NCBI GenBank assembly: GCA_015061775.1
Contig: SUVY01000022.1
Location: 1-38,199 of the forward strand
Source of the DNA: Lentisphaerota bacterium
Lineage (GTDB): Bacteria > Verrucomicrobiota > Lentisphaeria > Victivallales > Victivallaceae
Direction of reading: 5' to 3'
Length of the DNA stretch: 38,199 nt
Shown: piece by piece, positions 32,421 to 38,199 of the stretch
How positions within the stretch are numbered: the stretch's first letter is position 1
Layout: each line of letters starts with the position of its first letter
Translations under genes and position numbers: made by a program
The notes under the pieces: model-generated
Told to the model about the DNA's origin: nothing
What the model saw: only the letters and a program-made list of their open reading frames with translations
The model's database searches: none

Positions 32421-32500
32421 CCGCTTTTCTTGAAAAGGGAAGGGGTTTGGGGAAGGGGAAAACTTCTTTTCACGGGAAAAGAAGTTTTCCCCTTCCCCAA
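32421..32500 (-). repeat. Family A hairpin element, copy 3
   Basis: Inverted orientation. A perfect 25-bp stem (32447-32471 with 32476-32500, loop ACGG), preceded by CCGCTTTTCTTGAA. The terminal inverted repeats of copies 1 and 4 are absent, so it is shortened. Confidence 0.8.
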
Positions 32501-32635: not shown

Positions 32636-32781
32636 GCGCAAAACGGAAAAAACAGCAAAATTTTTACGCTATCTTGTCTCTTTGGGACGCAAGAAGCAAC
32701 GATTGACGAAGTCATGCAATTTTGTCCTCTGGCACGATAGATGTTTTTGTTCCGGGAAAATTTGAATGATCGAGGAGGTTT

Positions 32782-34308
32782 ATGATGAGAAAATTGGCTG
32801 AAAAATATCATGCGGGACAGTTCCGCAAAGGCGAAGAGAAACTTCCTTATATCGTCCATCCGCAAGCGGTAGCCGAGACGTTGGAGCGGTGGGGCGAAAG
32901 CCCGGCTTCTACTGCGATCCAGATCGCATGGGGACACGATCTGCTGGAAGATACCAGCGTCTCTGATGCCGAGATAGTTGCCGCTTCAAGTGCGGAGGTT
33001 TTGCAGGGAATCAAGCAGCTCACCAATTCCGGAAATATCGCCAAACGCCTCTATTTGCAGCAGGTCGCCGATTGCGGGATACGCGAGGTGCTGCTGGTGA
33101 AAATTTCCGACCGGATATGCAACTCGCGGGATTTTATCAAGTTCAAAGGCACGCTGTACGCCTTCAGGTATATGCACGAAGCCGACTGTCTGATTCCGGC
33201 ATTGGAGCGGCTTAATGATGATGCTGTTGTGAAAAACGCATTGCATGAATGGAAAATTTTGGATGAGGAGCTTTTTTCTTCCGTTCAACATGATATTATT
33301 CGCGGCTGCATGCTCGGAGGCGCTGTCGGCGATGCTCTCGGCGCGCCGATCGAATTTCTTGATTTGCAAGGCATCGAAAAAGTTTACGGAGGCGCAGTCA
33401 GCGATTATGTGGAGTTCTCTGACGGAACAGGAGCCATTACCGATGATACCCAGATGGCACTCTTTACCGCCGAAGGAGTATTGCGGGCAACTGTGCGAGG
33501 TAACAGCAAAGGTATTTGCGCTCCGGAAGGTGTTGTGCATTATGCCTATTTGCGTTGGCTGAAAACGCAGGGAATTGTTGTCGGCTGTGACGAAAAAGAT
33601 TTGAACAGCGGTTGGCTTATCAATGAAAAACAGCTCTTTTCATGCCGTGCTCCCGGCAGAACGTGCCTCAACGCGTTGGAAAGCAACGACTCCACCAACG
33701 AGGCGTCCAATAACAGCAAAGGCTGCGGTACAGTAATGCGTATGGCACCTGTGGGACTGCATTTGATTCCGGAACTGGCATACGAATTCGGCTGTAAATT
33801 TTCCGCCATCACCCACGGCCACCCAACCGGAATCACGGCAGGCGGAGCATTTGCCATGCTTATATCATACCTGCGTTACGGAAAATCTCTGGATTCCGCG
33901 TTGGATATGGTTGAAAAACATCTGGAGTCTGAGTCTGACGCCGCCGAAACGCTTGCCGCTATCCGCAAAGCAAGAACCGCCCAGAGCATTGTTGAACTCG
34001 GAGAGGGGTGGGTTGCAGAAGAGGCATTGGCAATAGGCATATATTGCGCCTTGCGCTTCCCGTGGGATTTCAAGGCGGGAGTGCTGGAGTCAATCAATAT
34101 AACTGGAGACAGCGATTCCACCGGCTGCATAGCCGGGCATATCCTCGGCGCGTTAAACGGAGAAAACGCCATTCCGGAAAAATGGCGTAAAAACCTGCGT
34201 GAATACAATATCGTAAGTCAAATCGCCGATGATCTTCACACGAATTTTGAAGAAACTCCAGATGGAAACGTAACCCGATCCTGGTGGGAAAAATACCCCG
34301 GATTTTGA
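32782..34308 (+). CDS. SpoT-like HD hydrolase fused to ADP-ribosylglycohydrolase
   Basis: 508 residues in two enzyme domains. Residues 1-145 resemble the (p)ppGpp hydrolase domain of SpoT/small alarmone hydrolases: YIVHP (His26), GHDLLEDT (His52, Asp53, Glu56, Asp57) and KISDRICNSRD (Asp110, Asn114); no synthetase domain is present. Residues about 172-480 are an ADP-ribosyl-acceptor hydrolase (DraG/ARH): GCMLGGAVGDALGAP (Asp184), TDDTQM (Asp221, Asp222), NNSKGCGTVMRMAP, THGHPTG and ITGDSDSTGCIAG (Asp443, Asp445), so all metal ligands are kept. Cytoplasmic. AGGAGG precedes a doubled ATG (32782 or 32785). It could undo both an alarmone signal and ADP-ribosylation, perhaps as immunity or antitoxin; that role is inference. 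Confidence 0.88.
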   Translation: MMRKLAEKYHAGQFRKGEEKLPYIVHPQAVAETLERWGESPASTAIQIAWGHDLLEDTSVSDAEIVAASSAEVLQGIKQLTNSGNIAKRLYLQQVADCGIREVLLVKISDRICNSRDFIKFKGTLYAFRYMHEADCLIPALERLNDDAVVKNALHEWKILDEELFSSVQHDIIRGCMLGGAVGDALGAPIEFLDLQGIEKVYGGAVSDYVEFSDGTGAITDDTQMALFTAEGVLRATVRGNSKGICAPEGVVHYAYLRWLKTQGIVVGCDEKDLNSGWLINEKQLFSCRAPGRTCLNALESNDSTNEASNNSKGCGTVMRMAPVGLHLIPELAYEFGCKFSAITHGHPTGITAGGAFAMLISYLRYGKSLDSALDMVEKHLESESDAAETLAAIRKARTAQSIVELGEGWVAEEALAIGIYCALRFPWDFKAGVLESINITGDSDSTGCIAGHILGALNGENAIPEKWRKNLREYNIVSQIADDLHTNFEETPDGNVTRSWWEKYPGF

Positions 34309-34364: not shown

Positions 34365-35194
34365 TCAGGGAAGATTGGGAAACGCCATTATGTTCTTTAT
34401 GAGTCCTTTTTCGGAAAGCTTCCGTTTCAATGCGCGGATAACTCCGGGACAGGTGCATGGATTTCCGTATTCGGGCTGAAAATCCTCGACTTTGTGCTGC
34501 AATTCGTTCATTTTTTCGGTGTCGCCATTTTCCACAGCTTCCGCCAGGCTGCTGAAGAGTTCAGGCATGAAATTGGCTCCGCCGTTAACTCCGCCGTCGG
34601 CTCCTGCGAGCATCGCCTGCATGGTCAGGTGTTCCGGACCTGCAAAGACGGATTTTCCGAGATTTTTGGCTTGGGGCAGCAGATAGAGCAGATCCTCCAA
34701 AATTCCGCTGCTGTCCTTGTATCCGATCACGCCGGGGAGGACGAGCAGTTTCAGCGCAAGATCCGGAGTGATAGATATTTTCGTCAATGCCGGCATATTG
34801 TAAACAAAAAGTTTTCCGCTGAACTCTTCGGACAGGACCTTGTAATAATTAAAAATCTCATCTTCGTTCTGCGCCGGAATATAGCATGGAGGAGCGGCAA
34901 CCACGGCATCTGCTCCCGCTTCGAGGGCAAATTTTCCCAACTGCTTTCGGCTCCGGAAGCTCCGGAAATTCCAACGAGAAGCGGAACTCTCGAAGCGATC
35001 ACTTTGACTGATTCCAGGATGAATTTTTTCTGTTCAGCGCAGGAAAGTGCCGGTCCCTCTCCCGTAGAGCCGAGAATGAAAACAGCATGGACTCCGCCAT
35101 CGATCATGTAATCAAAAAAGGGCTTTACCGCCGGAATATCCACGGTGTAAAGTAACTCATGATCGGTTTTTATTGTAATTGCAAGGGGTATCAT
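34365..35194 (-). pseudogene. DapA/NanA-family aldolase gene disrupted by a frameshift
   Basis: Two adjoining frames together give one near full-length (about 276 codons) dihydrodipicolinate synthase/N-acetylneuraminate lyase protein. The 5' part (35194 to about 34940) ends at VGISGASGAES and has the FILGSTGEG signature. The 3' part continues from LGKFALEAGADAVVAAPP and holds the catalytic residues of the family: Tyr in FVYNMPAL and the Schiff-base Lys in IGYKDSSG. The break lies near 34935-34945 and is equivalent to a lost base (or four). Everything else is intact, so it is either a recent inactivation or a sequencing error. Pyruvate-dependent aldolase activity on a keto-acid sugar is likely; NanA versus DapA cannot be decided. 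Confidence 0.8.
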
Positions 35195-35350: not shown

Positions 35351-36796
35351 TTGAATGATCCTCCGCCGTTTCCAGCGGAAGCATTACCGCCAGTTCTCCG
35401 GAATATGGCTGAAGGAATTTCACTTTCCCGCAAAGTTCCCCTTGCAATGTCATCTGCCGCTGTTCTTACCGCTGTGGGAATGGCAATCGGACGCAATGTC
35501 TATTTTCAGCGCAAACGCGGCTTTATCGGACGGGCCAATTTATATGCTATTGTCTTTGCCGCCCGCGGAGAACGTAAATCTGTCACCTTCCGTCCGGCAC
35601 TTTTGCCGTTTTACAGTTGGATGAAGAAAAAAGATCCGGCATACAAACAAAAAATCAAAGAATACCGCCGTAATCTTGCTCTGATGCAGAACTTGGAAAC
35701 AGCATTGAGTAAACCCGGCTTGAAAGGAAATAAACGTCAGGAATTTGCTGACGAGCTGGCAATGCTTGAACATGGAATCGGCGAAATGCCCCGCAACCCG
35801 TGGTTTCTTGCCGACGATGCCACTCCGGAGGCGTTATTTAAGCTGATGAGCGAAACCGGAGGAACTGCCGGAATATTCAATGACGATGCCCGGTTGGTAG
35901 TCAAGATGCTGCTGGGCAATGTTTACAGCAATTCCGGAGAGGGGCGGGAAGAGTTTTTACTTCGCCCCTACGATGGAGAACAGCCTTTGATCAGACGGCG
36001 TATCGGTACCGGAGATGATCATATCGACCGCCCCTGTATCGGAATGCTGCTGATGTTGCAGACAGACTTCCTCAAAAAAATCGGAACTTCCGTATCGTTT
36101 TTTGACAGCGGACTTGCTTCACGTTGTCTCTTTTGTTACCCTGAAAGCTGGGTCGGCAAACGTGATGAAAATGGCAATCTGCTCCGGGCGGACGATGATT
36201 ACGAAATCCCATTGGCGGTTGAGGAAAAGTATAATGCTTTGATTTATGACCTGCTGGATAGAGCTTATGATTCAGATGATGTTTGCTATTATACTTTGAG
36301 CAAAGAGGCTTTGAATGTGTGGCGGGATTTCTATCATGAGGTTGAAACAGAAAGCTCTCCCGGCGGAGAATATGCCAATATGCAGGATTTTGCCATCCGC
36401 TATCCGACTCTTGTTTTGCGGTTGGCATTGTTATTGGCGGTCGTTGAGAGTAATGAAAACATTTCCATAAAAAATATGAATAATGCGGTTAAGTTGATGC
36501 ACTATTTTATGGCAAGTGCCAAACGCTGTAACGATGCTATGCGGCAGACCAATATTCCGGATAACGCACGTAAGATAATCTCTTACTGGCACAGGAATCT
36601 GTCCGGCAGACCCCGTCCGGTTTCCATCCGGGAGTTGGAGAACAGTATCGGATTGCTCAAAAGCGAAGTAGAAGAAGCGTTGCAAGTTCTCATTGAACGC
36701 AACTACTGCCGGTATCTTCCGCAGGAGTCTAACGAAGGCAAGAAAGGCAGAAAGCCCAGTCCGAAACTGGAAATAAATCCGCAGTTTTTTGAATAG
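35351..36796 (+). CDS. DUF3987-domain protein, 5'-truncated
   Basis: 481 codons from a TTG at 35351, but the frame is open from 35273 and the residues before the TTG (IPEEAKYLRWQPIQDTLEL) read like the linker that normally joins an N-terminal primase-like domain to DUF3987. No ribosome-binding site or ATG fits, so the upstream domain appears lost. The DUF3987 part begins PPPFPAEALPPVLRNMA, has a degraded P-loop-like AARGERKSVT (about 70-79) and GIFNDDARL, and ends with a winged-helix-like SIRELENSIGLLKSEVEEAL. Such proteins are carried by plasmids, prophages and integrative elements. Its stop codon touches a family A repeat. Probably a remnant. Confidence 0.7.
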   Translation: MNDPPPFPAEALPPVLRNMAEGISLSRKVPLAMSSAAVLTAVGMAIGRNVYFQRKRGFIGRANLYAIVFAARGERKSVTFRPALLPFYSWMKKKDPAYKQKIKEYRRNLALMQNLETALSKPGLKGNKRQEFADELAMLEHGIGEMPRNPWFLADDATPEALFKLMSETGGTAGIFNDDARLVVKMLLGNVYSNSGEGREEFLLRPYDGEQPLIRRRIGTGDDHIDRPCIGMLLMLQTDFLKKIGTSVSFFDSGLASRCLFCYPESWVGKRDENGNLLRADDDYEIPLAVEEKYNALIYDLLDRAYDSDDVCYYTLSKEALNVWRDFYHEVETESSPGGEYANMQDFAIRYPTLVLRLALLLAVVESNENISIKNMNNAVKLMHYFMASAKRCNDAMRQTNIPDNARKIISYWHRNLSGRPRPVSIRELENSIGLLKSEVEEALQVLIERNYCRYLPQESNEGKKGRKPSPKLEINPQFFE

Positions 36797-36952
36797 GCTT
36801 TGTTCCCGATATGGGTAGATGATGTGGGGGAAGGGCGAAACTTCTTTTCACGAGAAAAGAAGTTTCGCCCTTCCCCCACACCCCCAACCCACTTCAAGAA
36901 AAGCGAAGTACTTTTTTATTTACTTTTACCTACCTTTGTCGGGAAAAGAGCC
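36796..36952 (+). repeat. Family A hairpin element, copy 4 (complete)
   Basis: 157 bp with terminal inverted repeats GGCTTTGTTCCCGA and TCGGGAAAAGAGCC (12 of 14 match). The internal stem is perfect over 26 bp (36824-36849 with 36854-36879, loop ACGA). It begins at the last base of the preceding gene's stop codon, as if that end had been created by insertion. Confidence 0.88.
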
Positions 36953-36973: not shown

Positions 36974-37252
36974 TCACGAAAATAAATTACTGTGAGATCC
37001 GGTTCTGGAAAGTGTCAGGATCAAAGTATCGTTACTCAATGAATAAATCAGCAGCCAGTCCGACTTGATGTGACATTCCCGGAAGTCCGAATAATTGCCG
37101 ATCAATGCGTGGTCACGGTATTGTTCCGGCAATGTTTCGCCACTACTGAGCAGTCTGATTACATCGTCAAGCAAAGACATATCTGCTCCTTGCTTCATCA
37201 AAAGTTTGTAATCTTTCTTGAATCTGCTGGTCCAGATGACTGTGTAACTCAT
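36974..37252 (-). CDS. yafQ: YafQ-family mRNA interferase toxin
   Basis: 92 residues, RelE/ParE-fold ribosome-dependent endoribonuclease. The YafQ signature LPEQYRDHALIGNYSDFRECHIKSDWLL is at 41-68; the catalytic residues known for E. coli YafQ have counterparts in His48, His61, Asp65 and His87 (RTGSHSNLF). The start overlaps the antitoxin gene by 4 bp (ATGA), toxin second. Length and all key residues are intact, so an active toxin is likely. Confidence 0.93.
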   Translation of the reverse strand: MSYTVIWTSRFKKDYKLLMKQGADMSLLDDVIRLLSSGETLPEQYRDHALIGNYSDFRECHIKSDWLLIYSLSNDTLILTLSRTGSHSNLFS

Positions 37253-37527
37253 TTTTTAAGCTCCGCAAGGGCATCTTCAACGCTGGCATAAGTTTTGGCG
37301 TTGGGATTCTTTGCCAACTGCCGGGCTTCTTCCATCGCTGCAAGCGTTACAGCGTTAGGGGTATCCATTGTGATTTGAAAAGGAATACCTCTTGTACGCA
37401 AAGACTGCTTGATAAAAATATTGATGGCAGTAGTCAAGCTCATCCCCAGAGAGTCAAACATAGCCTCTGCTTCTTTTTTGGTTTCAACATTCATCCGAAT
37501 ACTTAAATTGGTGGTCGTAGTACGCAT
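37249..37527 (-). CDS. dinJ: DinJ/RelB-type antitoxin
   Basis: 92 residues. The N-terminal ribbon-helix-helix DNA-binding segment (TTNLSIRMNVETKKEAEAMF then LGMSLTTAINIFIKQS) is typical, followed by a toxin-binding tail (about 55-92). It neutralises the YafQ-type toxin and represses its own promoter with it. AGGAGG lies just upstream of the ATG. Confidence 0.92.
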   Translation of the reverse strand: MRTTTTNLSIRMNVETKKEAEAMFDSLGMSLTTAINIFIKQSLRTRGIPFQITMDTPNAVTLAAMEEARQLAKNPNAKTYASVEDALAELKK

Positions 37528-38071: not shown

Positions 38072-38099
38072 GCCGATTTTCTCCATTTTGAGTAAATTG

Positions 38100-38199
38100 C
38101 CCGTGCCGCCCGGCTTCGGGTTGCTGCGCAACTTATTCCGCATCCCTTGCCCGTGCCGCCCGGCTTCGGGTTGCTGCGCAACTTATTCCGCATCCCTTG
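38100..38199. repeat. Two perfect 50-bp tandem repeats ending at the window edge
   Basis: Units 38100-38149 and 38150-38199 are identical. Each holds two hairpins, CCCG-GCTT-CGGG and GTTGC-TGC-GCAAC. The window stops exactly at a unit boundary, so the array may continue or the contig may break in it. Confidence 0.92.

What the first reader, a model, noticed from the sequence alone, without database searches (positions are those of the whole stretch)
32782..34308. Fusion of a SpoT-like alarmone hydrolase and an ADP-ribosylglycohydrolase
One polypeptide joins an HD domain with the SpoT/MESH1 residue set (HP, HDxxED, DRxxN) to a DraG/ARH domain with all metal ligands kept. Both activities reverse signals made by bacterial toxins: small alarmone synthetases of the toxSAS/Tas1 type, and ADP-ribosyltransferase toxins. 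The protein could be a dual antidote against interbacterial or phage-defence toxins. Seen: both domains and their motifs. Known: the separate families' activities. Inferred: a joint immunity role. The accessory context (toxin-antitoxin pair, repeats, decayed genes) supports that reading weakly.
Basis: partly seen in the sequence, partly recalled or inferred. Interest (0 to 1): 0.85.

Follow-up and report, generated by a model that had tools for sequence, protein, structure and literature searches.

The report
Two-domain enzyme predicted to remove ADP-ribose
A gut bacterium (Lentisphaeria) makes one protein that joins an enzyme domain that cuts ADP-ribose tags off molecules to a phosphate-removing domain of the SpoT type; it is most likely a Lentisphaeria form of an already predicted bacterial system for undoing ADP-ribose damage inflicted by viruses or rivals, and probably not an alarmone antidote, because this bacterium and nearly all its family lack alarmone-making enzymes.

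Summary
Window 32782-34308(+) is one intact ORF: an N-terminal SpoT/MESH1-type HD domain joined by a long helix to an ADP-ribosylglycohydrolase (ARH), with the catalytic motifs of both kept. Eight orthologous fusions were aligned from other Lentisphaeria genomes (55-68% identity), patchily present even within the genus, so the join is not an assembly artefact. The 'dual antidote against alarmone and ADP-ribosyl toxins' reading is only partly supported. No alarmone synthetase domain is detectable in the host genome or in 76 of 78 genomes of its family, and no ADP-ribosyltransferase or alarmone synthetase was identified among neighbours. Relatives instead show a WYL-type regulator just upstream (4 of 9 loci), a DUF6994-like gene (6 of 7 fusion genomes, 7 of 382 others), and elsewhere the same ARH subfamily fused to a different phosphatase (CDKN3/DSP type) in AAA-WYL-ARH-nuclease-helicase operons. 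This matches the ARG-phosphatase-WYL systems that Iyer et al. 2022 (PMC9503650) predicted to reverse phage-made ADP-ribosylation; that paper lists an alarmone-type HD phosphatase as a variant. Best explanation: ARH removes ADP-ribose and HD dephosphorylates the released or exposed product. Biochemistry is untested. Additions here: Lentisphaeria distribution, no alarmone context, the DUF6994-like partner, loss or decay of either domain.

The parts
32773..32779 (+). ribosome-binding site AGGAGGT
   Evidence: read from sequence; better spaced for the second ATG at 32785, the likely start since orthologues align from M2
32782..34308 (+). HD-ARH fusion protein, 508 aa (507 from the second ATG)
   Evidence: open frame; orthologues; alignment A2
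32782..33222 (+). HD domain of the SpoT/MESH1 type (residues 1-147), motifs RK, HP, HDxxED, DRxxN; subfamily signature AWGHDLLED
33223..33351 (+). continuous helix 148-190 linking HD to ARH
   Evidence: AlphaFold2 model, pLDDT about 90
33304..34179 (+). ADP-ribosylglycohydrolase domain (residues 175-466), metal ligands E191, D221, D222, D443, D445
   Evidence: PF03747 8e-68; Foldseek best hits MJ1187, DraG, ARH1, ARH3, Tri1
34180..34305 (+). C-terminal tail ending YPGF, shared with ARH-only relatives (YPGY in Plesiomonas)

Best explanation
The protein is a two-step ADP-ribose-removal enzyme. The ARH domain hydrolyses the ADP-ribosyl bond on a protein or on a nucleic-acid end (inferred from the family). 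The HD domain, a SpoT/MESH1-type metal phosphohydrolase, then removes a phosphate from the released or exposed nucleotide product (for example a 2' or 3' phosphate on an ADP-ribose derivative or RNA end), just as an unrelated DSP phosphatase is fused to the same ARH subfamily in Alphaproteobacteria. It belongs to the ARG-phosphatase-WYL conflict systems predicted by Iyer et al. 2022 to repair ADP-ribosylation inflicted by phages; in several relatives a WYL regulator lies upstream. Shown: both domains, kept motifs, recurrence, neighbours, absence of detectable alarmone synthetases. Inferred: substrates, order of steps, defensive role.
For: ARH family and fold. HD of the SpoT/MESH1 group. WYL-type regulator upstream on the same strand, directly or one gene away, in L021, L022, L026 and L030 (WYL domain in the L021 copy by Pfam). 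Same ARH subfamily fused to a CDKN3/DSP phosphatase in AAA-WYL-ARH-(HEPN)-PD-(D/E)XK-UvrD plasmid operons, in a viral-collection contig L121 with AAA-WYL-DSP-ARH, and beside a separate CDKN3 gene in Roseomonas; WYL near a solo ARH in P. veronii. Published system with the same parts, including an alarmone-type HD phosphatase. No alarmone synthetase in the lineage, agreeing with zero RSHs in the PVC genomes surveyed by PMC3153485. A characterised SAH and MESH1 also remove the 2' phosphate of NADPH (PMC9765508), and an ARH-like enzyme removes ADP-ribose from RNA phosphate ends (PMC11833690).
Against: No biochemistry. The window's own locus has no WYL gene nearby (best match in the genome 29% identical, on another contig). 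Either domain can be missing or dead in relatives: solo ARH in G169/G041, ARH without metal ligands in L030, HD without a detectable ARH in G123, so a tight two-step coupling is not universal. The HD substrate cannot be read from sequence.
Confidence: 0.62

Rival explanations
1. Dual antidote: HD destroys toxic alarmones ((p)ppApp, (p)ppGpp or pyrophosphorylated tRNA) delivered by rivals or phages, ARH reverses toxin ADP-ribosylation, two unrelated threats met by one protein.
For: HD motifs complete and the HD profile also hits the (p)ppApp hydrolase 7smg; with no alarmone synthesis of its own, any alarmone would be foreign; an orphan SAH protects against killing by a rival (PMC9765508); patchy distribution.
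Against: No alarmone synthetase or ADP-ribosyltransferase identified beside the fusions; the interchangeable partner of this ARH subfamily is a DSP phosphatase, which argues for a shared phosphate-removal step rather than an alarmone role.
Confidence: 0.17
2. Nucleotide salvage or house-cleaning enzyme (free ADP-ribose, ADP-ribose phosphates, NADP breakdown products) with no conflict role.
For: SAH/MESH1 enzymes act on NADPH; in L069 the neighbourhood holds vWA and RtcB RNA-ligase genes, and an HD-only relative in G296 lies next to a SLOG-like gene by sequence reading, both compatible with RNA or nucleotide repair.
Against: Very patchy even within the genus, varying flanks, and plasmid and viral-collection versions beside nucleases, helicases or AAA genes fit accessory conflict genes better.
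Confidence: 0.15
3. The HD domain is a nucleotide-binding or regulatory module rather than a working hydrolase.
For: Domains separate or decay independently in relatives.
Against: All HD catalytic residues invariant across nine fusions, including L030 whose ARH has lost its metal ligands.
Confidence: 0.06

Closest known systems
ARG-centred systems with WYL or Nudix regulator and coupled phosphatase (Iyer et al. 2022, PMC9503650, section 3.8)
   Same: ARH core, fused or adjacent phosphatase, WYL regulator, vWA, nuclease and helicase neighbours, no coupled ADP-ribosyltransferase; an alarmone-type HD phosphatase is named as a variant
   Different: Lentisphaerota are not named in its text; the DUF6994-like partner is not named in the section read; the window copy lacks a nearby WYL gene; that system itself is an untested prediction
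DSP(CDKN3)-ARH fusions on Alphaproteobacterial plasmids (Leisingera, Fuscovulum, Cereibacter)
   Same: same ARH subfamily (37-43% identity by tblastn), N-terminal phosphatase, WYL gene upstream in Leisingera and Fuscovulum
   Different: unrelated cysteine phosphatase in place of HD
MESH1 / small alarmone hydrolases / SpoT HD domain
   Same: HP, HDxxED, DRxxN motif set; sequence-profile match
   Different: AWGHD instead of the LLHD/LHD-type signature seen in the aligned PDB chains; fused to ARH; host lacks detectable alarmone synthetases
DraG / ARH1 / ARH3 / Tri1 ADP-ribosylhydrolases
   Same: fold and metal ligands
   Different: subfamily with NNSKGCGTVMR and YPGF tail; 18-24% identical over aligned structure to solved members; no partner transferase identified

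Membership tests
ADP-ribosylglycohydrolase (PF03747) | significant family match over the whole domain | tested here: met
   E 8e-68, profile 1-286 of 287
ADP-ribosylglycohydrolase (PF03747) | dinuclear metal ligands (VEF Glu, TDD, GDxD) | tested here: met
   E191, D221-D222, D443, D445; lost in the L030 orthologue
ADP-ribosylglycohydrolase (PF03747) | ADP-ribosyl bond hydrolysis | not testable with these tools
   needs purified protein
SpoT/MESH1 HD hydrolase | HP, HDxxED and DRxxN motifs with profile match to RSH/SAH | tested here: met
   Pfam HD_4 itself below its cut-off
SpoT/MESH1 HD hydrolase | alarmone hydrolysis | not testable with these tools
   needs an assay; the host lacks detectable RelA_SpoT synthetases
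toxSAS or Tas1-type immunity protein | encoded beside an alarmone synthetase toxin | tested here: not met
   no RelA_SpoT domain anywhere in the own genome; none identified among neighbours of relatives, read by eye and by partial Pfam scans
ART toxin / ARH immunity pair (Tre1-Tri1 type) | ADP-ribosyltransferase gene adjacent | tested here: inconclusive
   none in the Pfam-scanned window genes, but not every neighbour ORF was scanned; the DUF6994-like partner has an unknown fold
ARG-centred conflict system (Iyer 2022) | ARH with fused or adjacent phosphatase | tested here: met
   fusion itself
ARG-centred conflict system (Iyer 2022) | WYL or Nudix regulator in the operon (reported for about 42% of such systems, so not universal) | tested here: inconclusive
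   present in 4 of 9 orthologous loci; absent at the window's own locus
ARG-centred conflict system (Iyer 2022) | protection against phage ADP-ribosylation | not testable with these tools
   prediction only, also in the source paper

The most novel reading that the evidence does not exclude
In lineages that make no alarmones, the SpoT/MESH1 HD fold has been re-used as the second step of ADP-ribose reversal (dephosphorylating ADP-ribose-derived or RNA-end products handed over by the fused ARH), working with a WYL sensor and a DUF6994-like protein as an anti-phage or anti-toxin repair system.
Probability: 0.35. Interest if true: 0.7.

Novelty: new member of a known kind. Interest (0 to 1): 0.42.

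Why it matters
It gives a single-chain, testable example of the predicted but unassayed ARG-phosphatase systems, in a lineage without detectable alarmone synthetases, so the HD domain's non-alarmone substrate could be identified directly. It also singles out a DUF6994-like family as a likely partner by co-occurrence. If shown, it would add a function to the SpoT/MESH1 hydrolase fold.

Tried and rejected
Assembly artefact or pseudogene: rejected, intact orthologues in separately assembled MAGs. Housekeeping gene: rejected by patchiness. Alarmone-metabolism gene: unlikely, no RelA_SpoT domain. Known defence-library match: none in PADLOC. DUF6994-like partner as a hidden ADP-ribosyltransferase: suggested by its YRG motifs, but a low-confidence, mostly helical model (pLDDT 67) with no PDB match, so left unknown; no viral-contig relatives found. 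Foldseek with the whole fusion listed ARH structures only in the rows shown, so the HD assignment rests on sequence profiles. Papers: no experimental work on HD-ARH found in the searches made.

Full report
Observation. The frame at 32782-34308(+) is open and encodes 508 residues. Residues 175-466 are an ADP-ribosylglycohydrolase (PF03747, E 8e-68). Residues 1-147 match SpoT/MESH1 HD domains: weakly by Pfam HD_4 (0.0012, below cut-off), better by NCBIfam spoT_relA (3e-11), and clearly with a profile of nine fusions, whose 22 PDB hits are RSH, SAH, MESH1, (p)ppApp-hydrolase or HD-domain chains. AlphaFold2 gives a confident two-domain model (pLDDT 87) with one helix running from HD into ARH. An RBS at 32773-32779 favours the second ATG, 32785, as the start.

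Distribution. The genome belongs to an uncultured Lentisphaeria lineage, judged by its relatives' record titles. Intact or near-intact fusions occur in G021, G011, G001, G381, G238 and G334 and in further MAGs L026 and L031, the last cut by its contig end. In the genus sample only 4 of 24 genomes, own included, carry it, and flanks differ between loci. A tree of the ARH domain groups the fusions (100/99) together with two solo ARHs of the same family, G169 and G041, nested among them (92/88), which suggests that these lost the HD domain. In L030 the opposite happened: the ARH has lost Glu191, one Asp of TDD and the GDxD ligands in frame while HD is intact. In G123 the HD frame stops after the linker and no ARH is detected in the remaining contig. 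The last two are single MAGs and need confirmation.

Context. The window locus has no obvious partner: an EamA transporter 450 bp upstream and a broken DHDPS-like gene downstream. In relatives, a WYL-type regulator lies just upstream on the same strand in four of nine loci (L021, L022, L026, L030). A DUF6994-like gene (PF22507, just under its cut-off) lies upstream on the opposite strand in L021, L023 and L025 and beside the HD in G123. It occurs in 6 of 7 fusion genomes (in the own genome as a more distant copy, on another contig, within a leucine-rich-repeat protein) and in 7 of 382 others (Fisher 2.6e-9, uncorrected for phylogeny). In G107 and G198 a DUF6994-like gene follows a WYL gene directly, and in G001 a second copy lies beside an ARH-PDDEXK_4 protein. 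L069 also has vWA, an EF-G C-terminal-like protein and RtcB downstream of it.

Same ARH elsewhere. On plasmids the subfamily is fused to a CDKN3/DSP-type phosphatase in Leisingera and Fuscovulum, within AAA-WYL-ARH-(HEPN)-PD-(D/E)XK-UvrD operons; a viral-collection contig L121 has the AAA-WYL-DSP-ARH part; in Roseomonas ARH and CDKN3 are adjacent genes; P. veronii has a WYL gene near a solo ARH. The interchangeable element is thus a phosphatase, not an alarmone enzyme.

Alarmones. The own genome (98% complete) has no RelA_SpoT synthetase match, and only 2 of 78 family genomes do; the same search scores in 11 of 14 control genomes. PMC3153485 lists zero RSHs for the Verrucomicrobia, Chlamydiae and Planctomycetes it surveyed. 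An alarmone-turnover role inside this cell is therefore unlikely. Foreign alarmones remain possible.

Literature. PMC9503650 section 3.8 describes ARG-centred systems with WYL or Nudix regulators and a fused or adjacent phosphatase, names an alarmone-type HD phosphatase among the alternatives, and predicts a role against viral ADP-ribosylation. PMC9765508 shows that an SAH removes the 2' phosphate of NADPH besides alarmone phosphates. PMC11833690 shows ARH-like and macrodomain enzymes clearing ADP-ribose from RNA phosphate ends. No assay of an HD-ARH protein was found in the searches made.

Verdict. Real and intact; best read as a Lentisphaeria member of a published but untested class of ADP-ribose-reversal systems. 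The dual-toxin antidote idea is only half supported, with the alarmone half made unlikely by genome content. What is added is the single-chain HD version in a lineage without detectable alarmone synthetases, a statistically linked partner gene, and evidence that either domain can be lost.

Noticed in passing
window 32447-32500 and 36827-36876: A 25-bp perfect hairpin with 4-nt loop, and a second copy of the 50-nt element 90% identical 4.4 kb away: a repeated palindromic element.
   Followed up: partly
window 38097-38196: Two identical 50-bp tandem copies at the contig end, probably an assembly-end duplication.
   Followed up: no
window 34365-35194 (-): DHDPS-like gene split over two overlapping frames: frameshift by decay or sequencing error.
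   Followed up: no
window 35351-36796 and 36974-37527: DUF3987 protein (matches a phage DNA-helicase PHROG family) beside a RelB/DinJ-YafQ-type toxin-antitoxin pair: mobile-element flavour.
   Followed up: no
L030 1860-3311: Orthologous fusion whose ARH lost its metal ligands in frame while HD motifs are intact.
   Followed up: partly
L107 5116-6993 and L108 6975-8174, 8312-10402: DUF6994-like domains fused to BspA-type leucine-rich repeats (own genome) or next to an ARH-PDDEXK_4 fusion.
   Followed up: partly
L131 5722-6822 (viral contig): Virus-collection protein with an HD domain of the same WGHDLLE type behind an unrelated N-terminal region; PHROG 990 also matches this HD domain.
   Followed up: no
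L078 5772-6859: HD-only relative directly followed by a SLOG-like gene, judged by sequence reading only.
   Followed up: no
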